A stretch of DNA of 64,000 bases from Paralichthys olivaceus. Taxonomy: Eukaryota > Chordata > Actinopteri > Pleuronectiformes > Paralichthyidae. Of this stretch, positions 1-31,639 are shown piece after piece. Under the pieces are notes generated by a model, which ran no database searches, was not told the DNA's origin, and saw only the letters and a list, made by a program, of their open reading frames with translations. The translations under genes were made by a program, and so were the position numbers. Within the stretch, counting starts at the first letter, position 1, and the number at the start of each line of letters is the position of its first letter. The stretch covers positions 1,736,001 to 1,800,000 of the forward strand of contig NC_091093.1 in assembly GCF_024713975.1 (NCBI RefSeq), in the 5' to 3' direction.

Positions 1-76
1 ATTTATTCATGAAGTGTACATTATATCTGAGTTTATTTGATCTTTCGCCATTGGGGAAAATGAATAACTCCATTAC

Positions 77-536
77 CAGACTGAACATTGTGCAGCTGGA
101 CTCTGATGTGGTTGTCCCTGTCAGAGCGGGTTTGTTCATGGTTGAATCCCAGAGCATGGAGCAGCTCATGCTGGACGGTTCCATGGTAAAGGCATCCGCT
201 ACGGGACAGAGACACCACCTGCTTACCACCACGACGTCCAACATAAGAGTAGCAGCTAGACAGGATGAGACATAAGTTGAAGATCAGTGATGTTTGACCA
301 CAGCTTTCAAGGCAAACTCTTCAATTATATCAATTTCTTACCCATTCTGAGACTCAATGCTTAGCCAGTCACGGTCGCTGCTTCTGCTGGGCCTAAAGCG
401 GATGCAGGAGAAGGAGGAGAAGGATTCCAGTCCACGGGTGATGATGGCCTTCTCTCGGGAGGCTGTGGTACCGCACAGCATTATGTTTTTTTTAACATCC
501 CACAGCACAGAGAAACAGAGGAACATGTTAGCAACA

Positions 537-577
<41 letters not shown>

Positions 578-2415
578 CACACACACAGTATTAGGCTTTT
601 ATAAGCTATGTGGAATTTATGCTTGGCTGTAATGGAAGCATTTCATGTTTCACTTGAATTCAGAATGGATTAAGACTAATGTGCAGGGTTTGGTGTCATT
701 TGGGCTTTTTCTGATACTGGTACTAAATTGTTTCTTTTGAAAAGGTTCAGGTGACTTTATAAGAGTGGATATGCTAGAGCTAATTGGAAGATGAAATTAT
801 ATATATTAAATATTCTTTATAGTATAGTTAACTTATTATTAAAATAAAATAAATAAGTCCAAAACTCTTGTATGTACAAATGTACTTAACATAGTTACAT
901 TCTAAATAAAACCCAACCCAACTAAATTAAGTAGGCAATGTGCTGACAGAACCATGCATGTGCTATGATGTTTATGTTGCCTTTAAGCAGGGCAACTATT
1001 TCAGTACATAGCTCATGGAAATCTGCATTCTGATTCGGTCCACGGTCCAGTAGGTAATATTATATTCTAATATATTGAGAAAACTTTGGGTGGGTATTTC
1101 ATTATTAGGGTGTTCATATTTGGGCCAATAAGGTATATGAGTAAAGTTGTTGAGCACAGACCAAAGATTCAAGGATGTTGTCAAAAATATACCTAAGAAT
1201 GCTGTTTGGACAATTGCTTAGCACTTTAATTCACAGTTTTTCATTAATCCTTATTCAATTTGATTTTATCCTGACTGTCGTTTGGATTTTAAATAATCCG
1301 TCTTTAAAAATGTAGTCATTCAAGTCATGACTCCAGAGGACAAGAGTGATGCTAAACATGAGTTCACAGGCAAATTGGCAGCCAACATGCTGGTTTGATC
1401 ACTCAAACCTTTTGACACCAGCGACCACCTGCAGTTTGACTCACAGGTTTTTATCTGATACTCACAGAAGTGATTAGTGATGTAATAAGGAATGTAGACC
1501 TTCCCGTCACTCCACTTGCCCCACATGCAGCCTCGGCTGGTGCAGGGGTCAGCATTTTTCTCTGCCTCGCTGCCAATGGCAATGTCTCCTCCAATCAGGA
1601 TGGGATCATTGTTGGAGCGGACTAAAACACATCATATAACATAATCGATTATTTAAATACCTGTTAAGGTATCACTAATAAATTATGAGTTGAAGAAATG
1701 TAAGCATCAACAGTCTACATGAAACTCATCAGCTCACACTCACTCAGATTATTGTTGGCTCTCTCTAGAAGTTCAGAGACTGAAAGATCCCCTGAGTCCA
1801 CTTCTGTAATCTCCTGTGCTCAATGAAATCAGCAGCAGCAACACAATTTTATTTTGCAGAAAAATACACCAGTCCTTATACAGTACATATCAATACAATA
1901 GGTCTGATTGTACATACCTGCCTGCAAGTAGGAAAGAAGAAACAAACATGTTGAGTTATTAGAAAAACAATATGGAATTACAATCAAAAGACGTACTCAG
2001 CCAAATAACCAAAAAATTGTCTCAAATTAAAAATAATAAAGATGGGAGGTTAAGAGATGCCAACTTAGCATAATAGAACCTAAGTTTATTGTACAGTTAA
2101 ACAACAGTCTACAGATGCAAAAAGGCCACTCTGTGTCAAAAATATTCAGCTTTCACTTAAAATAAAGACTTAACCTCAAATAAGAGAATTAACAACTTTT
2201 TTGTGACTGACAGATGACAGACTTCTTCTGTGACACAGGAGGCCTATCATGGTTGAGACTAACTAAAAAACAATATGTAGCTTTAAACAATTTATAACAT
2301 GTATACTGTGATTAAATGGGCCTTTGTACGGTCTTACCTCATTGCTGGCCCAACAGCAGGCAGACAGAAGCAGTAGAGTTAGAGCTGAGATCGTTAAACC
2401 AGACATGATAGACAT
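77..2415 (-). CDS. Astacin gene A: six-cysteine astacin metalloprotease (hatching enzyme/nephrosin-like), 3' part missing
   Basis: Predicted secreted zinc endopeptidase, minus strand, interrupted by introns. Coding exons: 2338-2415 (signal peptide, MSIMSGLTISALTLLLLSAC...), microexon 1918-1921, 1744-1818, 1466-1621, 342-462 and 77-255. The exons for the Met-turn and C-terminus lie left of the window. Visible parts are the propeptide, the LIGGDIA segment with the GD of the astacin propeptide switch, mature N-terminus [10 protein letters not shown] with the two extra cysteines of fish six-cysteine astacins, and the zinc site [19 protein letters not shown]. The zinc ligands are the three His and the base is the Glu. 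All visible splice sites are plausible, including the exon-4 donor GTGAGT that copy B has lost. Exon 4 could instead start at 1813 (CACAG|GAG), spliced directly from exon 2 without the microexon. An upstream in-frame ATG exists only in the unspliced DNA, so I start at 2415. Family call is firm; assignment to hatching enzyme, nephrosin or another subfamily is open. Confidence 0.9.
538..592. repeat. (AT)n/(AC)n microsatellite in astacin A intron
   Basis: Alternating TA followed by CA dinucleotides in the intron upstream of exon 6. The equivalent place in the right arm (about 16615-16625) has no such tract, so it expanded in the left copy or was lost from the right. Confidence 0.9.
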
Positions 2416-2533
2416 CCCAGCAGACCTGCAGGGAAAAGACAGCATTGAGCTAGTTTCTCCTCAGTGTAAAAACTGAATCAAAACCAAACAATCAAACTTT
2501 GATTCAGGTGTAGACATTAGCAGCCTAGCTCAC

Positions 2534-2587
2534 CTATGATCCTCTATGTGGACTTGTGTATCTGTAGTTTGGCTCCAGGCTTTTATA
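2534..2587 (-). promoter_or_regulatory. TATA box and non-coding leader exon of astacin A
   Basis: TATAAAAG reads on the minus strand at 2587-2580. A short leader exon ends at 2534 with a CATAG|GTGAGC donor. The next acceptor, CCCTGCAG, opens the signal-peptide exon at 2425. Gene B has the same arrangement in mirror image. The transcription start, about 30 bp below the TATA box, is inferred. Confidence 0.75.
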
Positions 2588-3579
2588 GATGTTCAGGTTT
2601 GTTGGTTGGACCAAATATGGATTATCTGAGTCCAGTAAAACGTGTAGTGTCAGCAGAGCTGGCACGCTTATCAGTCTCATTACATTTAAACAGATATGAG
2701 ACAGAAATACCCCCAAAGCATTATCAGTGGGAAAACAGACGTTTGTTGCATTTTCCATCATAACAGGTGGAATTAATGGAGAAAGTCACTGATGTCCTCA
2801 ATTTTATCTCAATTTCCATGGGGTGCCCTTATTTAATATGTAATTAGTGTGATGAGTGTTCAGTTCTCAGTTGATCTGAGGTATTTCATACTTTATTAAT
2901 GAAACCATATTTATGTGCTTAAATTAAAAAGATAACGATATAGTTTGACACGTCAGCTTTACAAAATAATAGCAACATATGTACAATGTGATGAAGCACA
3001 GCTTATTTCCATTTTTCCACCTCTTGTAAAAGGACAAATTCAAAGGAGAACTAAATAATCTAAGGCAGTCTTTTACAAAACTACAAAATGAATTGCTATT
3101 TGATCCATGGCTCATTCCATTAAGAATGCTGAACTGGATACAATTTGTAAATTTAAAATTTTACCAGGATTAAAAAGGGACTAGTTCTCACAGGTGTGTT
3201 TTTTTACGTGGACAGAAAAATAATTATCAACCACAATCTTACATTTGATCACAAACATGAAAATAATCTGCTATAGGTTACTCTGAATTCCTGAATTTTT
3301 ATCTTTTTTCTGATTATACAAAACAGTTCAAATCTTGTTGAGTTTAATGCTGTTACATTACTTTAATCTTTCCAGGTTAAGATATGTACATGTAGTGGCA
3401 CACAGAAACAGACGGACAGGGTTAAGACATGTGAATATGCTACTTTAATCAGTTTTAGCATTTATCCAGCTTCCTAGAAGTTTATAATGCAAGTGAAAAT
3501 TTGGTGATTAGGACAGCCTGAAGCAATTTCAGTTTGGGTCTCCCCATCTGCTCCTGAATAAGAGCAAGTTTCTCCTTTA

Positions 3580-4360
3580 AAGACAAAAAATAAGTCATGT
3601 TATTGTGACATGCAGAAATATAAAAACAAATAATACATTAACAGATTAAATGAATTAAAGAATAACCTTTGCAGTTGTGCTGCTTCTGAAATATCCCACC
3701 AGATTCCTTGCCTTCGAACGAATTGTGGACAGGACTGGGTTCTGATCAAGAGCCTTTTTTACAATGAGATTGAGAATGAATGGGCAATGCAAATGGCACG
3801 TCGGATCACTACCACATGCAATGATGTTGGCTGCACCATCACCAGGCAAGTTGTTTTTGAAATTATCCCCCATTCCTCCATGAGGGACGTCATCACATTA
3901 GCCAAATTGACTGCACCTGACTGCAGACCGGTGTTTTTATCTATATAATGACACGTCACAGCCAGGTATGCATCCATGTTAATGGATGTCCACATATCTG
4001 CGGTCAAGGTGACTGCTGCAATATTCTGCACTCCAGCTTTGGCTTTGCTTTTCTCACTCTGGTATTTCTCCTCCACCATTGCCTTTACAGCCTAAAGAAA
4101 AGGAAGAAAATAAAAGAAGAAATAATAACCACTGTGTGAAATTCAATAGTGTTCGCATGCTCATGCTTCCATCGTCACCAAACACACCTTTCTTGTTGGG
4201 AGGACGTAGGTTGGATCCAGTTTGGCCAAAAACGTCCTAAATCCTGTGTCCTTTACTATGCTGAATGGCTGGGTGTCTTTCACAATCATTGCCACCAAGG
4301 CCTCATCCAGCTCCTTCTTTCTGGTCCCTGGGAGAAAAAGTGACAAGTTTTTTTAAATAT
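3580..4360 (-). pseudogene. hAT transposase relic (ZBED/Ac type)
   Basis: Three minus-strand frames read as consecutive pieces of one hAT transposase. Positions 4161-4346 give an N-terminal stretch with MIVKDTQPFSIV and LDPTYVLPTRK. Positions 3759-4079 give the catalytic-core start, with TADMWTSINMDAYLAVTCHY. Positions 3655-3873 give a segment with LNLIVKKALDQNPV. The frames are joined only through an intron-like gap and frameshifts, and no C-terminal dimerisation region is seen, so this is dead. It lies directly inside the left arm boundary and beside the younger hAT element. Confidence 0.8.
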
Positions 4361-4416
4361 AGTATTAGTTCTGTCGACATTATTACAGGTGATTAGGAAA
4401 TATGTCATGAAAAGTA

Positions 4417-4472
4417 TTTTTTAATTGCCACATTTACCCCACATGCTTTGCATGAAAATAATGGGGTAAATG
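4417..4472. repeat. Half of a hairpin target split by a hAT insertion
   Basis: The segment ending ...attgccacatttacccc at 4440 is complementary to ggggtaaatg at 4463-4472 continued by tggcaattaaaaaa after 9224. Without the hAT element and one 8-bp duplication, the two pieces form a stem of about 23 bp around a 22-bp loop. Confidence 0.75.
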
Positions 4473-4834
4473 CAGGGCTGGACTGGGAGAACAAAACGGC
4501 CCGGGCATTTTTTGGCTCAGACCGGCCCACATAATTAGCGGAGCACATCTGCCATTAAATTGACGTAACTTATGTCTTCTAAATGTACAAACATTCTGGC
4601 CTAGTGGAAAAGGTGCACAATTTAACTAAAAAAACTCTCTTTCAGGTACCAAAAAAACACCAGGAAATGTGCAGTGACTTCACACTCAATTGTTTATTTA
4701 AAATGAATCTATAAATTTGTCATGATAGCTGGCAGAAAACCTGGACGTTGAGAGAAGAGAGCCTCTGGCAGCTGCCGATGAATTGGCCTTATCTGCTCTC
4801 TTCAGTCCAATCAGCTCCTTGGACAGAGAGAGGG

Positions 4835-5370
4835 GGGGGCACATACCCACTCTGATGTTAGGCACATACAACATCAGATTTTTAACGCTTTTATGTCGTG
4901 GTAATGTGGATATGTTTACTCACTTGGTGCATAGCCTTGTCTGCGCTCTTCAGTTCCAATCAGCTCTTTGGGCACACACACTACAGTCAATCAAACACTC
5001 ATGAAACCTACAGATAGCCACACACACACACACACAGGGGGGGGGGGGGACATACCCACTCTGATGTTAGGCACATACAACATCAGATTTGTAACACTTT
5101 TATGTTGTGGTAATGTGTATATGTTTATATGTTTACTCACTTGGTGCATAGCCTTGTCTGTCTACACCGACTACAGTCCATCAAACACTCATGAAACCTA
5201 CAGATAGACACACACACACACAGATAGAGAAGAGGAGGGGGTCGCATGCACACTTTGATGTTAAGCACATACAAGCTCATAAAAAATCTGGTTTGCAACA
5301 AGTTAATTATGTTCTGGTGAGGTGTAAATGTTTACTCACTTGGTGAATAGCTGACTTCACCGGAACCAAC
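4835..5370. repeat. Three tandem units of about 170-200 bp inside the hAT element
   Basis: Units start near 4837, 5041 and 5236. Each begins with a G run followed by a segment like acatacccactctgatgtta, then a stretch ending tactcacttggtg. Units 1 and 2 also share tcaaacactcatgaaaccta and are separated by CA tracts. Unit 3 is more diverged. They lie between the transposase stop and the element's left end. Confidence 0.82.
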
Positions 5371-5894
5371 GCTCACAAACCCCGTCAATCCAGTAAGAAC
5401 TATGTACATGTGAAGCCCTAGAGGGACAGGATTTCATAAAGAGGAAGACACAGAGAAGTGAGACTTGAATACATTACGTGTGTGTGTGTGTGTGTGTGCT
5501 TGTGTGCGTTTGTGTTTGAATCAGATTGATTTCTTCTCACTTACCCAGAAACCAAACGTCTGTCCATCTCCAAAAACAATCCTCACAATCCAATCTCACA
5601 ATCCTGAAATGGAAACCCTAAAAACAGTAAATAACAGAAAAGGATGTAATGCATGTTAAAGGGGGGGAAAGGGAAAAAGTTTTAATTTCAAGCCAAACAA
5701 TTACATTCATTTCCATAACTATAATACTTACTTTGTGAAAGCAAGTCGTCGCCACAACCTGAGACAGAGGCTTCCTAAAAGGAAAAAGAAGACAATCAAC
5801 AATGAAAGTGTTATGCCTTTTATTCCTTACTATCAAGTTTAGGTAATTTTGAAGAGAAACAAAACTAAACTAATATTAAAAATATTGTCTTACT

Positions 5895-8800
5895 TTAGTA
5901 GAGTAGGAGCTTCCGAAGCAGTTCACTTTTTTCGGCCACTCTGTCTATGACACTGTCTGTGTCCAATCCCATGAGGATGTCCTTTTCTGTGGACATCAGC
6001 ATGAAGGCCTCCAATTTACCAGCAGATAAGCTGCTCCTCAGCCTGCTCTTGATGAATTTCAAAGTTGAAAATGATCTTTCACAGGCTACCTGTGTCACTG
6101 AGAGTGTCAGCAGATATTTGTAGGACAGAGAAAGAAGAGGGTATGCGTCTGTGAGCAGGTTGAATCTGAGGAGAATCTGGTAGCAACACAGGGGGCAGTT
6201 TTTACATGAGGCACAGGCTTTGCTGACAATTTTCATCTCCTCTGGGTCTCCACCAGGTCCTTCCTCCACAGTACGGGATGTGTACTCATCTAGTGGTGGA
6301 TGTTTCAGCATGTCCCACTGGCTTGCCAAGCTTTCAAGTTCAGATTGTAAATTTGATATGGTTGCCGAATTGTTAAATTTGATGAGACATCTGCTTAGGT
6401 CTTTCAGTGCAGACTCAGGAAGACCACTGGTTTTGATATCTGGGAAGTTTTGGGGGTCCAGAATTGAGAGGTCTGCATACAGATTGCTGTTATCGAGGAA
6501 TCGTCTTTGCATGGCCTCAATAACGGTGTCCATAATTTGGTTATGGACTTTAACCTCATACGTCTTGCTTTGGTCATTGGAAGTTTAATCCTGGGCCATC
6601 TCTCCTGGCATGGACTTCTTCTTCTGTTGCCTCCTCTGCGGTAGTGAAACCTCCACCTCCATGCCCATCTCCTCATCCTGCTCCTCCAGCTTGTCATTTG
6701 CCCACTTCACAATACTCTCTGTTGCATCCTTGACTGTCTGGAAATCTCTTCCCATCTCCTTAAGGGCCTCTTGTGTGGACATCACCATCCTGTGGGCAGA
6801 GAGGATGTCCATCCCGCCTGTTTGGAGGTATTTGGATAGTGGGGTGGTCTTCTCAAATATCCGCAAGAATAATTGCGCGGTCAGGATGGTCTCGTGTCTG
6901 AGAAGGCCATCTTTGTATCCCCTTGCTTTGGATCTTACATTTGACTTCACTGTCGTCTGGTCTTGAATGGCTGAAAGGGTGCACAGAACATCAATGTAGA
7001 GACAGTCCTGCGGTTTCCCAAATGAGCCAAACACTTTCTCTAAGGCATCATGCTTTGCCCACCAGCGTGTCTCTCCAATGGGTGCTATGCGCTTGTGCCT
7101 GCTGCTGTGGCTTTCCTTCTCCCATACGTTCATTCTCTGATGAGATTCTCGGATGAACACAGCGATGTCATTCAGGAGATGAAAAAGAGATCCACTCTCT
7201 ATCACAATTTCAGTGGTGTCAGAAAGAATGAGATTGAGCACATGAGAGTAGCACCACACATGGACATGGTGAGGAGATTGTGATGACAAGAGTGAAGAGA
7301 AGCCTCTGTATCTTCCCTGCATGTTGGCAGCTCCATCTGTGGCATTTCCGATGCAGAGGCTTTTGTCTAAGTTCAGACCATCAAGCACATCACTCAACAA
7401 CTGAACAAAGGCCTCTCCTGTGGATGAACTGCACATTACCACAGCAACAAGCCTCTCGTTTACAGTCTCATTGACGTACCGAAGCACAACTGAGCACTGG
7501 TCTTGTGCTGTGATATCCTGTGTTGTGTCCAGTTGTAAAGTAAACATGCCGGCTTTTTGAATTTCCGTGCCGATGTTGTCTTTGATCATCTTAAGGATTG
7601 TGTCAATCACTGAGTTGACAGTCGATTTAGACAGCAGAGTGACAAGGGAACCCCTGCCTCTTGAGCCTGATGCAGATTCATGGAGCTTTTTGCTTTTATG
7701 AATTATGTCATTGAGATGTTCTTTCAATGCCACATCATATTTCCCCAGCAAAAGTATCATCTCCAAAAAGTTGCCATGATCAAGGCTGCTGTCCTCTAGA
7801 GTATAAGCAGCCTCATTGTCTTCGTGCCTGTAGCTTAGCCCCCTCTTTCCAATCACTCTGACCACTTCCACCACACGGTCTAACACCTGCCGTCTCTTCT
7901 TGATCTGCTCTCTATGAGCAGTTAGCTGTCTTCCTCTAAGCAGGCTGTTTATGTCAGATTTTGAGCAGTTTAGAAAATAAGCTTCAGCACAAGCTCTATG
8001 TGCCATGCTTTTTTCATGCTCTTCTGCTCTCTGGTGAGCATGTCTGCAGTCAGACATTCCAGACATTGCTAAAGGCCAAGCATACAAAACAAAATAAAGC
8101 AGGACGTTGATCACAGTATGTCAGCCACTTCCTGCTTGTACCTTCTTTGTTTGTGAAGACCTTTCCTATTGGGTTTGGAGCATCTTGCTTTGGATGGTGG
8201 TTCAAAAAAGTTTGCAGTGTAGCACGGTCTGGACGGCAAAAGTAGTCAACATCTGCCTCAACAGTCTTGCTTGACTAGAAAAGAACAGAGGGATCAATTA
8301 TTAATTACAAATAATACAATACTTAAACTAAATATCCAAATGTATATTTATTTGTAGTAACATTAATGCTTAAATGTTATATTTTATTTGGAAATATCCA
8401 AATAAGTTATACTGTATTCATCTCCATTAAGTCATTTTAATATCTTTAAATTACCCATATTTAGAACACTGTAGGATATCTCTAAAATATGCCACGTTTT
8501 AAAAATGCAATTTTATAGACGTGTGTATCGTGGGGCTATGCTGTGTGCTTGCTTATCCTTCAGGCATGATAGCGTGCAGCATGACTATTCATCTAGCATT
8601 TTCATTAGCATATTAGCATAGCCGTTTGTCACAACTATTACGCATCATTTTCATATCGCTGCGGCTGGCTAAATTCAAATCCATCATCTAAACGTATTAT
8701 CCTTATGTTAATAGCTGCTTACCTGGTGCACCGGCAGCGGCTCACTCAGTCCATGACCCTCGGATTCGGACTCATCATCTCCTCCTCCCTGTTCATGGCT

Positions 8801-9049
8801 AGTACTAGCGTCACCCTCTTCCACCATCTGTGCTGTCTCCATGGGTGGATCGCTACAGCTAGCCCCCTCGCCCTGTCCAATGGTGCTGGTGGTGCTTGAT
8901 TCACCTGAGGTGGAGGGGGCTCCCGAAACACCTCCACTGAACATGTCTGTTATTTTAGAACATTTTCCGGCGTCTGCGGCTAGATTTTTGAGCCTTTTGG
9001 CCCTGAGCTTTTCAGCTCCACCTTTATGTTTACGCTTTGGTTTGTCCAT
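5895..9049 (-). pseudogene. hAT transposase (TTF zinc finger, ZMYM1-like), one stop and one frameshift
   Basis: Exon 1, 9049-8723, encodes 109 residues beginning MDKPKRKHKGGAEKLRAKRL and ends at a CAG|GTAAGC donor. Exon 2 begins at 8274 after CTAG and opens with a TTF-type zinc-finger segment (RKWLTYCDQRPALFCFVC). The frame then shifts near 8070. The long frame that follows (read from there down to 6588) holds the catalytic core with LQLDTTQDITAQDQCSVVLR and CIGNATDGAANMQGRYRGF. A TAA at 6585-6587 interrupts it, but the same frame continues to 5895 with the hAT C-terminal dimerisation region (VACERSFSTLKFIKSRLRSS). As written it cannot make full-length protein. It resembles vertebrate zinc finger MYM-type 1-like genes, but the flanking transposon ends show it is the element's own gene. 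Confidence 0.85.
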
Positions 9050-9284
9050 TGCCGTCTTCCACTCTCGCAAACTCGCGGCCGAGGGCCGTCAACATGACAT
9101 CGTGGGCCGCCGGTTTCAAAAAAAAAAAAAAAAGAACCGGGGGCGGCCGTCGGCCCTCGAGGGAAGTCGGCCCACCGGGAAAATGCTCGGTATGCCAGAT
9201 TGCCAGTCCAGCCCTGGGTAAATGTGGCAATTAAAAAATATCGATTGTAGGAACATACTTTTCATGATTAATCTTCTTGCCTTG

Positions 9285-11790
9285 GAGGAAGATTAATTTT
9301 CCAGAAAGCAACAAGAAGGGGAGACTCTACAGGAGATGCAAAATGATATGCAAAATGCTGAGGTTCTGCCTCTAGATCAGTTCGTGGAGCATGTCCTTGA
9401 TGGTGCCCTCCGTCAGGGGCTAAAACAGTTGGTGCGCAGGCAGGTTACTTGATGTCAGAGGAGAAGAAATAAGGTGGAAACGTGAGGGTGTGCCTTGTGG
9501 GGCGAGAGAAAGAAGTCATTCTGTCCCGTGTTCTGGGTGGTCCTGCAGGGATAGTTGTTTCACAGCAAGCATCAGAGATGAGGGAAATGTTAAAGCTTCA
9601 ACAAGAGCAGTTGAGTCAGCTCACGCAAAGTTTCACCCTCTTGCAGAGCTCTCATCAGCATGGCCGTTCATCTCATCATCGTCCTGTCATATGTAAACGC
9701 CATACTCAACCCTCCTTGCACGCCCCCTCAATGTCTGGTATGCAGTCTCGCCCAGCTCGGCCTTTGGAAAACTAGCACCCACCAGATTGCAGAGCCAAAG
9801 CTCGAGTGGGGCATCTACTGGCTCACGGGTTGTTTTAAGTGTTTTGGGGGAAAACTGTAAGCTGATGTCATGACCGCATTTAGATGTGCTACCTCCAGCA
9901 TTTTGAGCCATTGGATCAAGAAATTCTCCAGTCTTGTCACTGGTTAGAGCAGCAAATGGGTTGGTCATAAGTTAATAGCTTAACAATGTTAAGAGCTGAT
10001 ACTATCCAAATAGATCACTTTGGTCCCAAAACACAGGCTCTCTTGTGGTTCCAAGAGTCTGTAAGAGTAGAACAGGAGGTAGAGCATTCAGCTACCAGGC
10101 TCCTCTCCTCAGGAACCAGCTCCCACTCTGGGTTCAGGAGGCAGACACCATCTCTACATTTAAAGTTAAACTTAAAACGTTCCTTTCTGATAAAGCCTAT
10201 AGTTAGTTCTGGATCAGGTGAGTCCTGAACCATCACTTAGTTATGCTGCTATAGGTCTAGACTGCTGGGGGAACTCCCATCATCCACTGAGCACTTCTTT
10301 CTGTGACTCTGCCCCCCCACATTCATTTATTTATTTTAATACGTGTCAATAACGATGTTTCTTTTTTCTCCCATAGTGTCTCTCACTCCCCCTCCTCCCC
10401 CACCCCACTATCTCTCTTTCTCTTCTCTCCCCTCTTCTCCACCCATCTCTCCTCTCCTCCCCTTTTTCTTTGCTCCCCCCAACCGGTCGATGCAGATGAT
10501 CGTCCACATTGAGTCTGGTTCTAGAGGTTTCTCCCTGTTAATGAGGGAGTTTCTCCTCCACAGTCTCCAAAGTGCTGCTCATTGTGGGAACTGTTGGGTT
10601 TCTCTATATTAATAAGATTTTAAGGTTTTGACCTTCTATGTAAAGTGCCTTGAGATAATGTATATTATGATTTGGCGCTATACGAATAAAATTGAATTGA
10701 ATTGAACTGAATTAATGCCACGGTGTGGGGTGTTGGTAGTAATGGATCCCCCTATCAATTAATCTTTTCATGTCCCAGGTGTTTTGGGGATAATAATGTA
10801 CAAAGGTGTTACAGAGGGCAAAATGGCCTGGCTTTGTTTGATCTGCCCTCAGTATCTGCAGTCCCAGAGTCTGTTGTGCAGGCATTGCAAAAGGGCTATA
10901 ATAGAAGTTTTCTGGAAAATGGTGAAAGGAGAACTCAGGCAGCAGCTGATTTCTTATGCAGAAGATTTTAATGTAGACTTGATGCATCAAGGAGACCAGA
11001 AGGTACAACAATATACAAACGCTAACAGAGTAACATGAGCAATTGTCACCCTCAAGTCTGACGATGTCTCCCACAGCATCCCCATATATCTCCCTCTACC
11101 TGCATTATCCATTCTAACAGCAAATGAAGTTGGTGAGAGATAAAGTTGGTGCCTCTCTGTCTGGGGAATCTGAGTTAGATATGAAAGTCTCTAAGCATAG
11201 ACACCACAATGCACTGTTGGTTGGTCCCTTATCTATAACCTGACCTTGGTTGTTGCTCAGAGAGATAAGTATCTGTGAATTAAACAGGCACTATTCTCTT
11301 GTACAGATATAATGTAATATACAATATATATAGTGGCATATACAGTAATGTGTGAGGATGGTGCTCTTCCACTATGGACCTGGTTATTGGGTACAACCAG
11401 GTCCCAGTCAGTGAGGGAGACAGACCCAAGACTGCATTCTGCAACCCATTTGTTTTTTTTTGAGTGGAACAGCATGCCCTTTGGACTGTTTAATGCCATT
11501 CACCTTCCGGAGATTAATGCAACATCTGTTTGGTGACCAGAAAGGCCAATCATTGCTTCTCTACCTTGATGACATTGTGGTTTTCTCTTCCTCAGTAGAA
11601 CAGCATCTGGAAAGGACGGAGGTGGTGTTGAGTCAGCTTCAACAGGAAGGCTTGAAAGCAAAGCGTTAATTTTTCCAACAAGAGGTGCGTTACTTGGACC
11701 ATGTGATCTCTGACAATGGTCCCTAAACAGATCCAAGCAAGGTAGAAGTGGTAGCCAACTGGAAGTCTCCCAACTTCTGTTGGTGGGAAT
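9285..11790 (+). mobile_element. Ty3/gypsy LTR retrotransposon relic
   Basis: At 9296-9450 the frame reads as gag-like (QFVEHVLDGALRQGLKQLVR), with more gag-like sequence to about 9660 (MLKLQQEQLSQLTQSFTLLQ). A dispersed repeat interrupts at about 10050-10706. Reverse transcriptase resumes at 11370-11780 in shifting frames: FEWNSMPFGLFNA, then LLLYLDDIVVFSSSVEQHLE with the catalytic YLDD, then a segment like VRYLDHVISDNG. Frameshifts and the missing protease, RNase H and integrase make it non-functional. No LTRs were identified. Confidence 0.8.
10050..10706 (-). repeat. Dispersed fish repeat, family R2 (copy 1)
   Basis: Long interspersed sequence ending in gatttggcgctatacgaata followed by repeated aattg. 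The same core (ccacattgagtctggttcta, ctgctcattgtgggaactgt) recurs at 60350-60655 and in reverse at 18256-18400. It sits within the Ty3/gypsy relic, so it arrived later. The family looks like the non-coding end of a LINE, but that class is inferred. Confidence 0.8.
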
Positions 11791-11984
11791 GTTTTTATAT
11801 TTCATCCTGAATGCCTACACTCAATGTCTTACAGACACTAACTCTAATTCAACAGAATTATACAAAGACAATCTAATGGCCAAGGGCTTTGGGGAGAATT
11901 TCTAAATTCATTATCAGTGAGTAACAAGTCCATTTCAGAAATTGAGTGCATATGTAGACTATAATTGTCACGATTTAAGGAGCG

Positions 11985-12655
11985 GATGGACCCAAAAATG
12001 CAGAAGCAAAAACCTTTGACAAAAAGTAAAGGGAACCAAGATCAGGGCTGACAAAAAAATCCTCCAACAGAAAAGCACTAAGAAAACTAGAAGAAGATCT
12101 CAAAAAGGCTAAACTGAAAAACATCGAAAAAAACTGAAGAAACACTAGGAACTCACGAGTGAAGGAGCGAGGGTGATGACATGAGCCGACATGAGGAAGA
12201 CCAGGATTGACAACCATGAAACGACGACAGGGTGCTGAGACAACCACATAAGATACGACAACGAACCGACAGCACAGAGACTTAAATACACACTGAACTG
12301 ATGACAAACTAGAGACAGGTGACACAGGACAAACGTGAAACTAATCAAGGCAGGACGTCAAGGTAAAAAAACCCACAAGCAGCAGAAAATAAAACAGGAA
12401 AGACGGTGAAACACAAATCTAAACAGAATGAAACACAGAGTGGGACACAGCAAACACAGAGTTACTGTTAACAAATCTGAAAACAAGGAAAACACACCAG
12501 GAGCAACACCAACAACATAAAACTGAAAACACAAATCCAAACATAAGGAAAGCACAGGTATAGCTAAACATATAATAAACAAGAAGAACATAATCAAAAT
12601 GAAAACACTCTTCATGAAAGAGGCAAAAAGTCCAGAGTCATGACAATAATTCACC
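11985..12655. repeat. Unclassified A-rich repeat bounded by tgtcacg/catgaca
   Basis: Begins ttgtcacgatttaaggagcg and ends gagtcatgacaat, with a purine-rich interior and no coherent coding frame. The ends give a short imperfect inverted repeat, as in many non-autonomous DNA elements, but I could not confirm a target duplication. Flanking sequence at 11790-11985 and 12655-12720 shows nothing recognisable. Confidence 0.45.
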
Positions 12656-12719
12656 TTTGGCATATTTTACATGCTCTTACCCGTTTATTAGAGATTAGAC
12701 ACACTGATCAGAGAACTGA

Positions 12720-13680
12720 GACATGGGAAGATAGTGTCTCAGATTAGAAAAGACCAAGAGGAGTGAGGAGCTGAACTTGGTGTTCAAGCTCAGAGTGGAC
12801 GAGTTTGATTATATTATCTTTGTTACATCAAACAACACAAAGTGTTTCAGCTGTGGAAAGGAAAGACATCAAATGAAAGCATGTCCACAGAAAAATAAAG
12901 CAGCTGTCAGTCAGGAAGGACAGGAGGAGACAAGAGGGGTCCAACAGGCCTGTGAGTGATATTAATGGAGTGAGACGAGGAGCTGCGTAAAGTTCCTCGT
13001 CTAAAAAGAAAAACCAGGAGCAACAGTGGAAGCTCACAAAGAAAGGGACAGTGAAGGAAGGAGTTCTGACACTGTTGCCCAAAAAAGAAGACATCCAAGA
13101 CATAAAAAACTGGCGACAGGTGTCTCTGCTGTGCACAGATTACAAACTGCTCTCAAGGGTCCTGGCGAACAGGTTGAAAAAGGTGATGGACCAGATCATT
13201 GACTGGACCCAAACCCACTGTGTGCCTGGCAGGTCAATTGTTGACAATGTGTCACTGATTAGAGATATTTTGAAACTCTCTGGTTCATTGGGCATCGGTG
13301 CTGGTCTGGTTTCTTTGGACCAGGAAAAGGAACCTGGGGAGCAGAAAAGCAGCTTTCAGGCAACAGTTCATACAAAGTCTGATAACTAGCCACAAGCACC
13401 ATTTTAAGGGGAGTAGCAGATCTTGGTTTAGATGCATCTTTCTTTTTAATGAACTGTGATTTTATCTGTTTATGTGACCTGCCTCCATTTTATCAGGGAC
13501 TGTTCAAACATGGACTCTTTTTAAGTGGAACAGACTGGAACCTGCAGCTTCACTGTTTTGGCTCCTAGATGAGCCTCTGATCCACGGAGCCATGCTGAAT
13601 GTTCAGGATAACAGCAGATCTGGTCTCATCTCGCTCTCTCTCACTCTCTCTGCTTGAGTTTGTTTGTTGTTTATTGTGAC
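12720..13680 (+). mobile_element. Tx1/L1-clade LINE relic
   Basis: Positions 12777-12959 carry an ORF1-like CCHC knuckle (CFSCGKERHQMKACP). Positions 13051-13320 carry reverse transcriptase from the 5' side of the domain: LLPKKEDIQDIKNWRQVSLL, then SRVLANRLKKVMDQIIDWTQ and CVPGRSIVDNVSLIRDIL. Near 13560 a further piece reads WLLDEPLIHGAMLNVQDNSR in one frame. The YADD core is missing, so a large internal deletion joins the pieces. The copy ends just before the right arm of the inverted duplication. Confidence 0.82.
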
Positions 13681-13700
13681 TCCCGACTCCTGACCTTTAT

Positions 13701-16700
13701 GCTGTCCTAATCACCATATTTTCACTTGCATTATAAACTTCTAGGAAGCTGAATTAAATGCTAAAACTGATTAAAGTGGCATATTAACCTGGAAAGATTA
13801 AAGTAATGTAACAGCATTAAACTCAATAAGATTTCAACTGTTTTTTTTTTTTTATCAGAAAACAAGATACAAAATTTTGCGGAGTTCAGAGTAAACTATA
13901 GCAGGTTATTTTCATGTTTTCTTTCATTCTCACCTTGTTGGCCTCCTTAACAGATCTAAGTGTTGCTGCTAGTTAAACAAACACAAGTGATCAAATGTAG
14001 CATTGTGGTTGATAAGCCTTTTTCTGTCCACATAAACAAACGCACCTGTAAGACCTAATCCTGAAAATATATTAAATTTACAAATTGTATCCAGTACAGC
14101 ATTCTTAATGGAATGAGCCATGGATCAAATAACAATTCAGTTTGCAATTTGTTTGTAACAGACTGCCTTAGATTATTTAGTTCTCCTTTGACTTTGTCCT
14201 TTTACAAAAAAAAAAAAAGGTGGAAAAATGGAAATAAGCTGTGCTTCATCACATTGTACATATGTTGCTATTATTTTTTGTGGCTTCTCAATCTATATGG
14301 TTATCTTTTTAATTTAAGCACATAAATATGGTTTCATTAATAAAGTATAAAATACACTCATCACACTAATTACATATTAAATAAGGGCACCCCATGGAAA
14401 TTGAGATAAAATTGAGGACATCAGTGACTTTCTCCATTAATTCCACCTGTTATGATGGAAAATGCAACAAACGTCTGTTTTCCCACTGATAATGCTTTGG
14501 GGGTATTTCTGTCTCATATCTGTTTAAATGTAATGAGACTGATAAGCGTGCCAGCTCTGCTGACACTACACGTTTTACTGGACTCAGATAATCCATATTT
14601 GGTCCAACCAACAAACCTGAACATCTATAAAAGCCTGGAGCCAAACTACAGATACACAAGTCCACATAGAGGATCATAGGTGAGCTAGGCTGCTAATGTC
14701 TACACCTGAATCAAAGTTTGATTGTTTGGTTTTGATTCAGTTTTTACACTGAGGAGAAACTAGCTCAATGCTGTCTTTTCCCTGCAGGTCTGCTGGGATG
14801 TCTATCATGTCTGGTTTAACGATCTCAGCTCTAACTCTACTGCTTCTGTCTGCCTGCTGTTGGGCCAGCAATGAGGTAAGACCGTACAAAGGCCCATTTA
14901 ATCACAGTATACATGTTATAAATTGTTTAAAGCTGCATATTGTTTTTTAGTTAGTCTCAACCATGATAGGCCTCCTGTGTCACAGAAGAACTCTGTCATC
15001 TGTCAGTCACAAAAAAGTTGTTTATTCTCTTATTTGAGGTTAAGTCTTTATTTTAAGTGAAAGCTGAATATTTCTGACACAGAGTGGCCTTTTTGCATCT
15101 GTAGACTGTTGTTTAACTGTACAATAAACTTAGGTTCTATTATGCTAAGTTGGCATCTCTCAACCTCCCATCTTTATTATTTTTAATTTGAGACACATTT
15201 TTTGGTTATTTGGCTGAGTACGTCTTTTGATTGTAATTCCATATTGTTTTTCTAATAACTCAACATGTTTGTTTCTTCTTTCCTACTTGCAGGCAGGTAT
15301 GTACAATCAGACCTATTGTATTGATATGTACTGTATAAGGACTGGTGTATTTTTCTGCAAAATAAAATTGTGTTGCTGCTGCTGATTTCATTTAGCAGAG
15401 GAGATTACAGAAGTGGACTCAGGGGATCTTTCAGTCTCTGAACTTCTAGAGAGAGCCAACAATAATCTGACTGAGTGTGAGCTGATGAGTTTCATGTAGA
15501 CTGTTGATGCTTACATTTTTTCAACTCATAATTTATTAGTGATACCTTAACAGGTAATTAAGTAATTGATTATGTTATATGATGTGTTTTAGTCCGCTCC
15601 AACAATGATCCCATCCTGATTGGAGGAGACATTGCCATTGGCAGCGAGGCAGAGAAAAATGCTGACCCCTGCACCAGCCGAGGCTGCATGTGGGGCAAGT
15701 GGAGTGACGGGAAGGTCTACATTCCTTATTACATCACTAATCACTTCTGTGAGTATCAGATAAAAACCTGTGAGTCAAACTGCAGGTGGTCGCTGGTGTC
15801 AAAAGGTTTGAGTGATCAAACCAGCATGTTGGCTGCCAATTTGCCTGTGAACTCATGTTTAGCATCACTCTTGTCCTCTGGAGTCATGATTACATTTTTA
15901 AAGACGGATTATTTAAAATCCAAACGACAGTCAGGATAAAATCAAATTGAATAAGGATTAATGAAAAACTGTGAATTAAAGTGCTAAGCAATTGTCCAAA
16001 CAGCATTCTTAGGTATATTTTTGACAACATCCTTGAATCTTTGGTCTGTGCTCAACAACTTTACTCATATACCTTATTGGCCCAAATATGAACACCCTAA
16101 TAATGAAATACCCACCCAAAGTTTTCTCAATATATTAGAATATAATATTACCTACTGGACCGTGGACCGAATCATAATGCAGATTTCCATGAGCTATGTA
16201 CTGAAATAGTTGCCCTGCTTAAAGGCAACATAAACATCACAGCACATGCATGGCTCTGTCAGCACATTGCCTACTTAATTTAGTTGGGTTGGGTTTTATT
16301 TAGAATGTAACTATGTTAATTACATTTGTACATACAAGAGTTTTGAACTTATTTTTTTTATTTTATTAATAAGTTAACTATACTAAAAAGAATATTTAAT
16401 ATATATAATTTCATCTTCCAATTAGCTCTAGCATATCCACTCTTATAAAGTCACCTGAACCTTTTCAAAAGAAACAATTTAGTACCAGTATCAGAAAAAG
16501 CCCAAATGACACCAAACCCTGCACATTAGTCTTAATCCATTCTGAATTCAAGTGAAACATGAAATGCTTCCATTACAGCCGAGCATAAATTCCACATAGC
16601 TTATAAAAGCCAAATACTGTGTTGCTAACATGTTCCTCTGTTTCTCTGTGCTGTGGGATGTTAAAAAAAAACATAATGCTGTGCGGTACCACAGCCTCCC

Positions 16701-17156
16701 GAGAGAAGGCCATCATCACCCGTGGACTGGAATCCTTCTCCTCCTTCTCCTGCATCCGCTTTAGGCCCAGCAGAAGCAGCGACCGTGACTGGCTAAGCAT
16801 TGAGTCTCAGAATGGGTAAGAAATTGATATAATTGAAGAGTTTGCCTTGAAAGCTGTTGTCAAACATCACTGATCTTCAACTTATGTCTCATCCTGTCTA
16901 GCTGCTACTCTTATGTTGGACGTCGTGGTGGTAAGCAGGTGGTGTCTCTGTCCCGTAGCGGATGCCTTTACCATGGAACCGTCCAGCATGAGCTGCTCCA
17001 TGCTCTGGGATTCAACCATGAACAAACCCGCTCTGACAGGGACAACCACATCAGAGTCCAGCTGCACAATGTTCAGTCTGGTAATGGAGTTATTCATTTT
17101 CCCCAATGGTGAAAGATCAACTAAACTCAGATATAATGTACACTTCATGAATAAAT
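13701..17156. repeat. Right arm of the large inverted duplication
   Basis: Mirror copy of 1-3517, carrying exons 1-7 of astacin gene B. Differences from the left arm include a 50-bp deletion near 13785, an A run at 14207-14218, absence of the AT/AC microsatellite, and single substitutions. One of these is at 15471 in the exon-4 donor. The match runs to the window edge of the left arm, so the duplication may continue through the rest of B. Confidence 0.93.
14626..14679 (+). promoter_or_regulatory. TATA box and non-coding leader exon of astacin B
   Basis: TATAAAAG at 14626-14633. The leader exon ends at 14679 (CATAG|GTGAGC) and a 108-bp intron reaches the acceptor at 14787. The upstream 75-residue open frames in both directions are shadows of this conserved promoter region, not genes. 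Confidence 0.75.
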
Positions 17157-18489
17157 AACTGGTAAGCAACACTGATGATAGACAATGCTGCCAAGTATAC
17201 ACTGTGGTATTGTACAATCAGGTCAAAGAAACATGAGATTGAGAAATATTAGGCAGGTGAAGAAAAGAGTCGTCCTTTGAAGGGACACTTACAGCTACAA
17301 ACTTTGACACAATCCTAATCATACATGAAACTGATGCTCATTGTTTGACTTCAGGTTTCTAACAAGATTATCCCTTTTCACTTTTAGGAATGGAGCACAA
17401 CTTCAGGAAGATTGCCACCCTCAACCAGGGCACTCCCTACGATTACAACTCTGTCATGCAGTACCACAAGTGAGAAGAACTGGCTGAACATCAGCCCTCT
17501 AATGTTTTATCATACATATGTGTGTTTGTGTGTGTGTTTGTGTAGCACATGCTGTGTAACTACCTAACTGCTGCTGTCTTGTTGTAGGTATGCCTTCTCT
17601 AAGAACAACCAACCCACCATGGTCCCAATCCCTAACTCCAATGTGTCCTTTGGCAATGCCAAGGAGATGAGCCGCAATGACATCGCCAGGCTCAACACGC
17701 TCTACAAGTGCTGTGAGTGTACACATGCGTAGTGCCACTCTCCAGTTATGTTGAATACTCTTCAACATGTTGCACGCTCTTAGGACTAAAAGTGCTGAGT
17801 AGAACCATAAAGGGTTCTTTGTCTTGTCCACAGGAGAACGCTTTTTTGTTCCAGGTCTTTTCATAAAGGTGCAACTTCGAACCCTTTCCAAGCTTTTTTA
17901 CAATAACCAAAGTTTTGATTAAGATAATTTGTGTAAGTGTTAGAACACTTGGTGGATAAGGAGGGGAGACTCTTATAAACCACATCAATCCAGATCGTTC
18001 CATTTTAACATTGATGTCCTGGCTGTGTGTCTCACACATGCACTAGACTCTGCAGATCCTCCGTAATTTCTCCAGAGGAGGTGCATGTGGGAACACAAAT
18101 GTCCGAGTGAGACGCTCTGCATGTTTCTACAGACTTTATCTGCCTGACCTCAGAGGATAAAGTCCTTAGAAATCGAGGAGAAGTTGATGTGAGAACACAG
18201 CAGGGAATCCCCGCTGGATTCACTGCGAGCGAGGGATTCCAAGAGTTTGTGGCGATAATTCAATTCAATTCAATTTTATTTGTATAGCGCCAAATCATAA
18301 TATACATTATCTCAAGGCACTTTACATAGAAGGTCAGGACCTTAAAATCTAAATATAGAGAAACCCAACAGTTCCCACAATATAAGATAAGAGCTGACAG
18401 CGGTGTTGGAGTGCTTTAAATAAAATCACGTGATCTACGCAGCGGAATTAAAACGTCACTTCTTGCCTCTGCTTTTTTGTTTCACAGGA
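14798..18489 (+). CDS. Astacin gene B: six-cysteine astacin metalloprotease (hatching enzyme/nephrosin-like), complete, one damaged splice donor
   Basis: Exons: 14798-14875 (signal peptide), microexon 15293-15296, 15399-15470, 15593-15748, 16695-16815, 16902-17080, 17388-17469, 17588-17712 and 18488-18489. The phases give about 272 residues, usual for the family. The order is signal peptide, propeptide with LIGGDIA, mature start [10 protein letters not shown], zinc site [19 protein letters not shown] and Met-turn [10 protein letters not shown], ending in LYKC. The stop TGA is split by the last intron (T|GA). Six cysteines are present (DPC, RGC, FSCIRF, GCYSYVG, GCLYH, LYKC). The exon-4 donor reads CTGAGT at 15471 where A has GTGAGT. 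Skipping exon 4 keeps the frame and removes part of the propeptide; retaining the intron gives an early stop. An alternative acceptor at 15400 could join exon 2 directly to exon 4. The gene may be functional, altered or a young pseudogene. Confidence 0.85.
18040..18245 (+). repeat. Dispersed repeat R5 in the last intron of astacin B
   Basis: The segment containing gcagggaatccccgctggat and actgcgagcgag recurs in reverse at about 59117-59176 inside an ano1 intron. No coding frame or class was recognised. Confidence 0.55.
18256..18400 (+). repeat. Dispersed fish repeat, family R2 (copy 2)
   Basis: Starts with repeated aattc, then ttttatttgtatagcgccaa and gagaaacccaacagttccca. It is the reverse complement of the ends of the copies at 10050-10706 and 60350-60655, and lies in the last intron of astacin B. 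Confidence 0.8.
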
Positions 18490-18542
18490 AGCCTGCTCAG
18501 ATGTAGACCTGTACACACCAGCACAACATTCAATCATCATCC

Positions 18543-18548
18543 AATAAA
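18543..18548 (+). terminator. Polyadenylation signal of astacin B
   Basis: AATAAA lies 54 bp after the split stop codon, a normal distance for a short 3' UTR. Confidence 0.75.
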
Positions 18549-19149
18549 TGTATTGTGACTGAATGACAGCAGACTCCCTTCATTCTTTCATTGCATCCTC
18601 TTTGTTTACTTTAAGTAAATGAGGCACATTCATTCAATCATCTATTCATTCATAACACTAACTGGTTGCTTTTCTAGCATGATGTCACTTTGAATGTTGA
18701 CATTATCTCAGGTTGATAGATGAAATTCAGAGGAACATATTTGAATTTGATCAAAAACACAAAGGGGTTGTGATCTGAAAACAAGACTTCTCATGGGAAT
18801 TAAGGTTGTCCAAGCAAAATGGCCACATTGGCTTATCTATCAGTTCTCCATTTTTGGAGGTGGGGCATTCTGCTCCTACTTGTCTTGTCTTTTGCCATGA
18901 TGCTTGTCATAAATATACTATGTATATATATTACACCACTGTGAAGAGAAAAGTGTTAAGATACAATGAGAAACATTGGTTTGAAAGATACCCACTGCTG
19001 ATGTCAGTGGGCATCTTCACTGGTTTGACTATTGACTATTGTCATAATATGGAAGCTAATCAAATATATGGCTAAAGTATAAATTATAAAAAAAGAATAT
19101 CTAATGGAGTAGAATGAATGAAGAAATGTAAGTAATCCTGATAGGTAGT

Positions 19150-24228: not shown

Positions 24229-27200
24229 ATGATACTCCAGACTGCTGTTCTCAGTGTGTTCCTCTGCTCTGTCTGCAGCTTCACTATACAGGTAAGCATA
24301 AATACATTTGTCCATTTGAATATGGACAAATCAAGAGTTTTATCTTTTCATCAAAATTTGAAAAATAATGTGCAATCCTTGTGTTGAATTATTTACTGTG
24401 CCAAATTCAGGTTTTGTTAAAGGTTGTAAAATTTTGTGACATCTAGCAGTGAAGTGTCAGCTGAATACCCTTAACCTCACATTACCTTCCAACCATGTAA
24501 GATAACCTGTGGTAGACTTCAATCATAATAAACTCCAAAGGTGTTTAGTTTGTCTAGGCTGGGCTACTGTAAAAAAACATGTCGGTCGCCGCAGAGAGGA
24601 GTATTTTAATATAAATTTACTATTCTAGGGTAAAGAAAACTAATCAATTTACATGATTACACACTAGTGAAAACATCACTAGAATTATTTTATATTCCAT
24701 TTCTGCCAATAGATCCATTTCACCTAAATTATACACACTGGAGCTAAATATATCCTATATATAGATCTATATATATATATATATATTATGTTAATACTGA
24801 TGTAGTGTTCAGATAATAAGCTGACTTATCTTCTTAGCTGTAAGGAAATTGCAATTTTGTCTTTTATTTTACACTTACACAGAGTTTATTACAATCTATT
24901 CTGATGCCAGAGTGTAAACAATAGCAAGGAGAAAAACATTTACACCATGCCTGGTTTTCCTTGCACATTATGGATACAGGAACTGCACTTCCCATATGAT
25001 TTTAAAGTTAGATTTCTGTGGAACTTAACTGTCTCTCTGAACTTATTTCTGATAATATCACATTGGTTCCTCCTTCACTGAACCATATATAACACATTCT
25101 ATTTTTACACTATGTCTTATTATAGGCTTCACTTGAAAAGACAGAGGAATACTCTGGTAAGACTTGGCTACTTTTTATTACTAAAGTACTAGTTTTGCGT
25201 AATGCAACTGATGCACAAACAAACTGTTTCTTTTCCACAGGCAACACCATTGCAGATGATGAATTCAGCGTTTCCACACTGTTAGAGAAGGCCAATGCTA
25301 ATCTTGGTAAGTTCATGTCCACTGAATGTCAACCAGCATACTGTTATGTACTGTATGTATGTTGAGAACCAGACAAAAAAAATCAAACCATAAAATGTTT
25401 TACTAAATATTCATTAAGATGTTGCATAATGTTGGCATTACACTCTGACATATACAGTAGAGATACTTTCAAATATAACCCTCTGTGTGGAGGTTGTTTC
25501 AGGCCCAGATATCCCTTAACACATCAGTGATGTCAAGACAATGAAATATAGAACACAAAAAAGATCATCCTTTTGTGGTTTTGCAGGAAAGAACATGGAT
25601 GAGCCTCTGGTGATATTTGGAGACATAGCAGTGCCAACAGGTCTACAAAATGCTGATCCCTGCACAACCCGTGGCTGCCTGTGGCCTAAATCCTCTGATG
25701 GCAATGTTTATGTACCATACCGACTCTCAAATGCATACTGTAAGTTTCAGCAAACATGAAGGACTTTTCTTTTTCTGTAGCAGTGAATATAACTAATATT
25801 AAAGGATCACTTAATAATAGCAGTACTATAAAGGTGGTGGTAGCAGTAAATATTTGACTTGTAGCAGTCGCTGTAGCAGCTATATTGCAAAAGTAGTAGT
25901 TGTAATGCTAGTGATGGCAATGCTAATATTATTACTGGTAGTAATAGTTGTAGTAGGCTAGTATTAGTTGCAATAGCATTATTAACAGTAATAGAAATAG
26001 CAGCTTCACTAGTGGTAGCAGCAAGAGTGCTGTTGCAAGGCAGCAGAAGCAGCGGCAGAAATAGTAGCAATGGTAGCAGTGGTATAGTACTACAGTAGTT
26101 TAGTAGTAGTATTATTAGTACTATATATTCTAGCAGTAATGGTATTTTACTGCTAAACATATTATATTTAATATGATAATAGAATGAATGCAAGTCACTA
26201 AACTGATGAGAAGGTTTTTCTTTTTTACTCTTAAGCCCAAAGAGAGAGAAATACCATTATTGGTGGTCTGCGGTCATTTGCTGCATCCACCTGCATCCGC
26301 TTCACCCCCTTGCAGAGGCAGAGGGACTTTGTGGACATCCAGTCTCTGTCAGGGTATGGACCACACAGTGCACATACCACATAAGCATACATGAATGCAC
26401 TTTCCTATTAACACCAAGAGCTGACAGGTGTCTTAGGTCAAAGGACACAGTGTGGGATATTCTCAAAAGGGACTTTTTTATTTGCACTGTTCACTCTCAG
26501 GTGTTATTCGTATGTCGGGCGTCGTGGTAATAGGCAGCCAGTGTCTTTGAGTCGCAACGGCTGTGTCTTCCATTCAATTGTCCAACATGAGCTGCTCCAT
26601 GCCCTGGGCTTCAACCATGAGCAGACCCGTTCCGACAGGGATGAGCATGTTCGCATCCAGTTGCAGAATGTCATTCCAGGTGGGTCATGTTCATCAACTA
26701 TTTGAAATTGTTTTTCATTATGAACAGTACAAGGCATACAATATATAAATACAACTATCATACTCCACATGATTTCAGCAGGTAAATGTATGTGTGAAAT
26801 ACCTGTAGAATGAACAAGCATGGACAGAAATGATGATCCCTAATTTCCTGCAGATTTAAGTTACAGGTCTGACAAACTGTATTGTCCTGTGTGATCCCCT
26901 GCAGGAATGGAGTCTAATTTCAGGAAGATCAACACAAGGAACCTTGGTACTCCCTATGACTACAACTCTGTCATGCACTATGGAAGGTAACATCTTAGTT
27001 GTCCCTCTGAACCTACCAAAAAAATATATAATACAATGCAATTATGAAATCATGTGATATATACAGTATATAGCACAACTAAACATGATATAGTCTCTTA
27101 AGAAAGCATACACATGGCCACATGTACACAGGACACCACTGTCTTTCTGTCCCTACTGGCCAATATCAGATCAAAGTCCAAAGAGATGAAATTCACAGTT

Positions 27201-29960: not shown

Positions 29961-30469
29961 ACACATCACACACATCACATTTAATACTGAAACCATAACA
30001 TTGCACAAAGTTGGGCCAAACTTTGGGAATGTTACATGTGTATTGTTTGACCTTGATACTTTATAACTTGCATATAGCATATGACACACTAAAGGAAATG
30101 AGGATATTAGTCACATTGTCATGTGACAATAACATCGTTTGTCAAGGATTTTCATTCCAGGATGATTTCAGACACTAGGTTTTTTTTGGAAAAAAACTTG
30201 AGGTATTCTATAAGACACAGTGTGGTTTAATTTATTAACAGAATTCATTTGAGGGAACATGGAGTAAACACTGTAAACACACTGCTGTAGGTGGTGGCAT
30301 TTAACCTATCTTTATTTTATGATAAATAAATAATCTTTACCACATAATCTTTACCACATACCACAACTTTTCAAAATTCAAATGAATGCTTCAAAAGGGA
30401 GTATTTAAATCGAATAAGTCATAAAATCATCAGATTTAAAATATAATTAAATTAAAACAAACTTAAATT

Positions 30470-31620: not shown

Positions 31621-31639
31621 ATCTTGGATTTGTTCTTAT

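What the first reader, a model, noticed from the sequence alone, without database searches (positions are those of the whole stretch)
1..17156. Divergent astacin pair inside a large inverted duplication with a transposon-filled 10-kb spacer
Arms 1-3517 and 13701-17156 are mirror copies. Exon 7 encodes the same residues in both and noncoding parts differ by few changes. The genes point away from each other, promoters included. Such a structure is either very young or kept alike by arm-to-arm gene conversion. The spacer contains at least five separate insertions, and some of these are clearly old (dead Tx1, gypsy and hAT relics). That favours an older duplication homogenised by conversion, or a duplication whose insertion point was already repeat-rich.
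Basis: partly seen in the sequence, partly recalled or inferred. Interest (0 to 1): 0.72.

Follow-up and report, generated by a model that had tools for sequence, protein, structure and literature searches.

The report
Inverted astacin twins kept alike
Two fish-like protease genes sit as mirror copies on one chromosome; their bodies appear to have been recently copied over one another and are almost identical, while both ends of the mirror copies, including a conserved stretch upstream of the genes, have drifted apart.

Summary
The inverted astacin pair is real, but the window cuts it. With the left flank fetched, the arms are about 5.3 kb (A -1746..3523; B 13695..18909), head to head across a 10.2-kb spacer, each with a complete C6-astacin-like gene model; the proteins differ by one residue in 278. 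Arm identity is uneven: a 4.2-kb core with the gene differs at 38 of 4135 sites (0.92%), the outer edge at 13 of 241, the inner 0.7 kb at 57 of 608. Its TE argument is half right: the large spacer hAT is a recent, TSD-flanked insertion; the Tx1-like and ZBED-like pieces look old.

New: the inner ~350 bp has one further detected genomic copy, U (29.5 kb, upstream of a third astacin gene), more conserved than nearby noncoding sequence. Against U, arm A lost 67 bp and arm B 55 bp of it. So the enzyme was kept alike while distal upstream blocks diverged reciprocally. Any effect on expression is untested.

The parts
1..3523 (-). Arm A, part inside the window (continues left to -1746 = G000:C1:1734254)
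13695..18909 (+). Arm B, whole
1..2822 (-). Near-identical core of arm A, part inside the window (core begins at -1371): 38 mismatches in 4135 aligned sites over the whole core
14391..18531 (+). Near-identical core of arm B
77..2415 (-). Astacin gene A, coding exons 1-5 (2338-2415, 1738-1813, 1466-1621, 342-462, 77-255); exons 6-7 at -312..-231 and -571..-427, left of the window. Gene model by homology to B and splice motifs, no transcript
14798..17732 (+). Astacin gene B, seven coding exons (14798-14875, 15401-15476, 15593-15748, 16695-16815, 16902-17080, 17388-17469, 17588-17732), 278 aa, Pfam Astacin E 1.3e-58. Gene model by eye from splice motifs, no transcript
2823..3523 (-). Diverged inner edge of arm A (57 mismatches in 608, plus indels); 67-bp loss after 3252
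13695..14390 (+). Diverged inner edge of arm B; 55-bp loss at 13786 and 11-bp loss at 14054
29470..29945 (+). U block: the only further copy detected in the genome of the inner ~350 bp of the arms; about 11 kb upstream of astacin gene D
3524..13694 (.). Spacer, 10.17 kb, TE-rich
4473..9216 (-). Young hAT (hAT dimerisation domain E 4.7e-8; DUF4371 E 2.3e-7, just under its cut-off), 14-bp TIR CAGGGCTGGACTGG, TSD GGTAAATG, one in-frame stop before the terminal stop of a 742-codon stretch
3524..4352 (-). Frame-broken ZBED-like hAT fragment (family by recall; Hermes-type DNA-binding domain E 0.003, below cut-off); only one other match, 82 bp, found in this genome
12691..13628 (+). LINE fragment (Tx1-like by recall; RVT_1 E 7.8e-10); copies elsewhere 83-90% identical over short pieces
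25255..28332 (+). Astacin gene C (first coding exon not located)
40791..44921 (+). Astacin gene D; B-D dS 1.35 over four exons (513 nt)

Best explanation
An inverted duplication placed two copies of a C6-astacin-like gene head to head. The copies first drifted apart over their whole ~5.3 kb. Later the middle ~4.2 kb (gene, about 0.4 kb of 5' flank, about 0.8 kb of 3' flank) was made alike again by ectopic gene conversion between the inverted arms, through one long tract or several events. The conversion did not reach the arm ends. Order by divergence per lineage: duplication (about 2.7-6.7%), then insertion of the hAT in the spacer (about 1.3-2%), then the last homogenisation (about 0.5%). Shown: arm structure, uneven identity, deletions private to each arm, a young hAT. 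Inferred: conversion as the process, the order in time, and any effect on expression.
For: Identity by arm position: outer edge 13/241 different, core 38/4135, inner edge 57/608; Fisher p 2e-6 (outer vs core) and 6e-28 (inner vs core). Core noncoding sites alone: 37/3298, so coding constraint does not explain it. A two-segment change-point test on gap-filtered columns within the window gave LLR 34.3 against a maximum of 7.2 in 500 permutations. The third copy U shows independent losses (67 bp in A; 55 bp and 11 bp in B) and similar substitution counts on each arm (15 A-derived, 17 B-derived), as for two long-separate copies. Matches to the inner block were found only at A, B and U in 588 Mb (the tool scores best candidates only). 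hAT age: three fetched copies differ from each other by 0 or 8 mismatches over about 4.6 kb, and from the window copy by 1.3-2.0%.
Against: No related species or population data, so conversion cannot be shown as arms more alike within than between species. The core mismatches are not significantly patchy (100-bp dispersion 1.28, reached in 177 of 2000 permutations; longest identical run 544, reached in 352 of 2000), so no internal tract mosaic is seen. GC of the core (0.395/0.399) is only mildly above the edges (0.28-0.37), exons included. When columns within 12 of a gap are dropped, the two-segment break moves to A 3157, so the mid zone 2823-3157 is no longer set apart from the core, and the three-segment scan puts both breakpoints in the inner end and does not pick out the outer edge. 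The outer drop rests on a direct comparison of a segment I chose after seeing the profile.
Confidence: 0.82

Rival explanations
1. Young duplication: the arms arose recently (about 1%), and the ends of one arm were later overwritten from, or joined to, an older related sequence.
For: Core mismatches show no significant clustering, as after one recent copying event.
Against: Needs a donor; no other match to 13690-14430 was found besides A, B and a part in U, and U differs from either arm at about 33% of three-way aligned columns. The drop is seen at both ends.
Confidence: 0.1
2. Young duplication with uneven mutation: the ends simply evolve faster than the core.
For: Many edge differences lie beside indels and homopolymers: dropping columns within 12 of a gap leaves 70 of the 111 arm mismatches, in 4670 columns.
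Against: The inner block is recognisably conserved against U although synonymous sites of B and D differ at 63%, so it looks slow, not fast, if U is as old as that split. The innermost zone stays at 23 of 169 after the filter against 28 of 2867 elsewhere in the window.
Confidence: 0.05
3. Assembly artefact: haplotypes or repeats joined in inverted orientation.
For: Long arms of 99% identity are a known source of misassembly; no reads were available.
Against: The arms differ at 57 of 608 sites at the inner end and carry different deletions relative to a third copy, unlike two reads of one locus; no N in the window or in the 40 kb of flanks; the contig is 31.8 Mb.
Confidence: 0.03

Closest known systems
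Mammalian X/Y palindromes (PMC8981503; abstract and passages seen)
   Same: Inverted arms kept >99% alike by intrachromosomal gene conversion; spacers described as structurally unstable.
   Different: Here arms are ~5 kb, sex linkage is unknown, the spacer is longer than the arms, identity falls at the ends, and GC enrichment is slight.
Tail-to-tail LWS opsin genes of poeciliid fishes (PMC3087554; passages seen)
   Same: Teleost gene pair in inverted order, in a gene group for which conversion has been proposed.
   Different: Different family; tail to tail rather than head to head.
Teleost C6ast genes at the 'Npsn&Pac' synteny set (mtch2, plekho2, fadd, ano1; PMC8812170, passages seen)
   Same: Intron-containing six-Cys astacins; the window has a death-effector-domain gene (fadd by recall) and an exon that looks like ano1 (by recall, no Pfam hit).
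   Different: The passages seen describe tandem or neighbouring copies; the main text has 0 occurrences of 'gene conversion' and 1 of 'inverted'.

Membership tests
Astacin family (M12A) | Astacin domain | tested here: met
   PF01400 E 1.3e-58, 198.3 bits against a cut-off of 22.5; PDB 3lqb E 1.6e-60
C6 astacin as worded in PMC8812170 | HExxHxxGFxHExxRxDR | tested here: met
   [19 protein letters not shown] in A and B
C6 astacin as worded in PMC8812170 | SxMHY | tested here: not met
   A, B and D read SVMQY, C reads SVMHY. I therefore call A and B 'C6-astacin-like' and file them only as astacin-domain proteins
C6 astacin as worded in PMC8812170 | Two extra Cys at the start of the protease domain | tested here: met
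   [12 protein letters not shown]; definition from passages
Gene-converted inverted duplicate | Inverted arms with a homogenised core and older edges | tested here: met
   inner edge firm, outer edge only in the unfiltered comparison
Gene-converted inverted duplicate | Arms more alike within than between species | not testable with these tools
   no relatives held
Gene-converted inverted duplicate | GC-biased replacement in arms | tested here: inconclusive
   slight GC excess, exons not removed; 12 vs 13 strong/weak differences, not polarised

The most novel reading that the evidence does not exclude
Conversion holds the two enzymes identical while their upstream ends escape it: a ~350-bp conserved cis-regulatory module has been partitioned by reciprocal deletion (67 bp lost in A, 55 bp in B, each lost part present in the other arm and, in recognisable form, in U), giving two differently regulated copies of one protein. 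One arm-to-arm difference also changes the exon-2 splice acceptor, which may silence one copy.
Probability: 0.25. Interest if true: 0.6.

Novelty: new member of a known kind. Interest (0 to 1): 0.42.

Why it matters
It is a compact natural test of how far gene conversion reaches: the coding unit is homogenised, and the similarity stops before a conserved upstream block that has decayed differently in each copy. If expression differs, it would show regulatory subfunctionalisation coexisting with protein-level concerted evolution, in the protease family that includes fish hatching enzymes.

Tried and rejected
Rejected: 'the main spacer hAT is an old relic' (a first TIR/TSD scan limited to 4700-5900 had found nothing because the element starts at 4473). 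Disfavoured: 'inner block is a dispersed repeat' (3 places found, all in this cluster; the tool warns that very common words are skipped and only the best candidates are scored). Unsupported: arm A or B as a simple insertion into a TE; the ZBED-like frame that ends at about 3524 was not seen to resume left of arm A (by eye) and no Tx1-like continuation was seen right of arm B (by eye). No significant similarity of the arms' upstream region or U to the stretches upstream of C, between U and D, or to 45-64 kb (permissive gap costs, 20 shuffles each, no score above the null maximum). Phage search with arm DNA: no match. Rfam (gathering threshold) and tRNA scans of the window: nothing. NCBIfam gave only a below-cut-off bacterial metalloprotease match (140 bits, cut-off 300).

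Literature: 0 held papers contain 'astacin', 'gene conversion' and 'hatching enzyme' together. Searches are listings. Passages only were seen of PMC8812170, PMC6385490, PMC8981503 and PMC3087554.

Full report
Place and content. The window is G000:C1:1736001-1800000 of a 588-Mb genome in 25 contigs. It holds four astacin genes: A (-), B, C and D (all +). The modelled B protein is 278 aa with a strong Astacin match; its two best solved matches are 3lqb ('LOC792177 protein', a zebrafish hatching enzyme by recall) and 3vtg ('High choriolytic enzyme 1'). A death-effector-domain exon at 47345-47791 (fadd by recall) and an exon at 54419-54760 that looks like ano1 (by recall, no Pfam hit) fit the 'Npsn&Pac' set mtch2-plekho2-fadd-ano1 (PMC8812170, passages). 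A, B and D read SVMQY where the published C6ast consensus is SxMHY, so I use 'C6-astacin-like'.

Arms. Within the window the arms match from 1/17156 to 3523/13695. The left flank shows that the outer limit is the window edge: the match runs on to -1746/18909, 97.5% over 1780 columns. Both genes are therefore complete as modelled. Their 837-nt coding sequences (stop included) differ at one site, T50S. The models rest on splice motifs and homology, not on transcripts.

Identity along the arms. In 200-column steps the arms are 96.5-100% identical between -1371 and 2822, falling to 96.3 and 91.7% at the outer end (the last step includes bases past the arm end) and to 95.3, 89.9, 80.0 and 92.8% at the inner end. 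Totals: outer edge -1746..-1500, 13 of 241; core -1371..2822, 38 of 4135 (noncoding 37 of 3298); inner mid 2823-3157, 17 of 308; innermost 3158-3523, 40 of 300. The innermost figure includes a poorly alignable T-rich stretch; the two BLAST pieces nearest the spacer give 86-93%. On gap-filtered columns in the window (3036 columns, 51 mismatches) a change point is found at A 3157/B 14071, 28 of 2867 against 23 of 169, LLR 34.3 (500 permutations, maximum 7.2). With that filter the mid zone is not separated from the core, and a three-segment scan of the whole arm (LLR 44.4; maximum 8.0 in 20 permutations) puts both breaks at the inner end. So the inner drop is firm, and the outer one rests on the unfiltered comparison (p 2e-6) of a segment chosen after the profile was seen.

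Third copy. Block U (29470-29945, + strand) matches only the inner ~350 bp of the arms. It lies about 1.1 kb downstream of C and 11 kb upstream of D's first coding exon. Genome searches with U and with B's 13690-14430 find only A, B and U. In a three-way alignment 76 columns separate A and B from U, 15 are A-derived, 17 B-derived, 7 all different and 178 identical (some columns are poorly aligned). The 67 bp missing in A are present in B and, at 50 of 67 aligned sites, in U; the 55 and 11 bp missing in B are present in A and, in large part, in U. A 92-bp piece of A scores 109 and a 90-bp piece of B 63 against the stretch 29000-45000, where 60 random 92-bp noncoding pieces of the B locus reach at most 35. 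B-D synonymous sites differ at 63% (dS 1.35, 513 nt). If U is as old as the B/D split, the block has been conserved; it may be a cis-regulatory module. That U belongs to D is an inference from order and strand; a younger spread of the block inside the cluster is not excluded.

Spacer. hAT 4473-9216 has 14-bp inverted ends and a perfect 8-bp duplication GGTAAATG, one in-frame stop before the terminal stop of a 742-codon stretch, and 97-98% long copies elsewhere in the genome. Three fetched copies differ from each other by 0 or 8 mismatches over about 4.6 kb and from the window copy by about 1.3-2.0%. So it is a recent arrival. The Tx1-like piece has matches of 83-90% (40 of 424 candidates scored) and the ZBED-like piece 3518-4472 has one 82-bp match elsewhere: these look old. 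The spacer is thus of mixed age and does not by itself date the duplication. The stretch 9217-12000 was not dated.

Interpretation. The edges record the older duplication, the core a later equalisation. The per-lineage order is edges 2.7-6.7%, hAT 1.3-2%, core 0.46%. No clock was applied. Core mismatches are not significantly clustered, which fits one long event or frequent conversion; these are not separated here.

Splice acceptor. Of the core differences, two lie in the last eight bases of intron 1 (B 15393 and 15398) and one seven bases before exon 6 (B 17381). With the phase-0 model, A reads TTGAGCACAG|GAG and B TTTAGCAGAG|GAG; in B the in-frame acceptor is GAG, with CAG two bases and TAG five bases upstream, out of frame. 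D also has CAGAG at this place, so B need not be the broken one, and an unrecognised exon could change the phase. The preference CAG>TAG>GAG is recalled.

Noticed in passing
B 15393 and 15398 / A 1821 and 1816: The exon-2 splice acceptor differs between the two copies so that the best-looking AG lies in registers 2 nt apart; one copy may be mis-spliced.
   Followed up: partly
G000:C1:5433938-5517386 (L028-L030 hold 5430001-5456000): Seven single-exon hatching-enzyme-like matches, 46-47% identical to B, in mixed orientations; the six in the fetched part are about 93-99% identical to each other.
   Followed up: partly
G000:C7:23844129-23853149 (L023, L024): Another intron-containing astacin pair, tail to tail, long diverged (only 79.6% over 157 bp in a self-comparison).
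   Followed up: partly
G000:C1:29643147-29663695 (L025-L027): A further group of astacin-like exons in both orientations, with short inverted and direct matches of 76-97%.
   Followed up: partly
window 18259-18381 and -1221..-1099: A short repeat shared by both arms at the same place, with further copies at 10581-10706 and 60522-60647; it predates the duplication or was carried by conversion.
   Followed up: no
window 32966-35558: Open frames that look gypsy-like and hAT-like (by recall; no Pfam hit at 0.01) between U and gene D.
   Followed up: no
window 47345-47791 (-): Death effector domain exon (E 4.5e-25), probably fadd (recall).
   Followed up: partly
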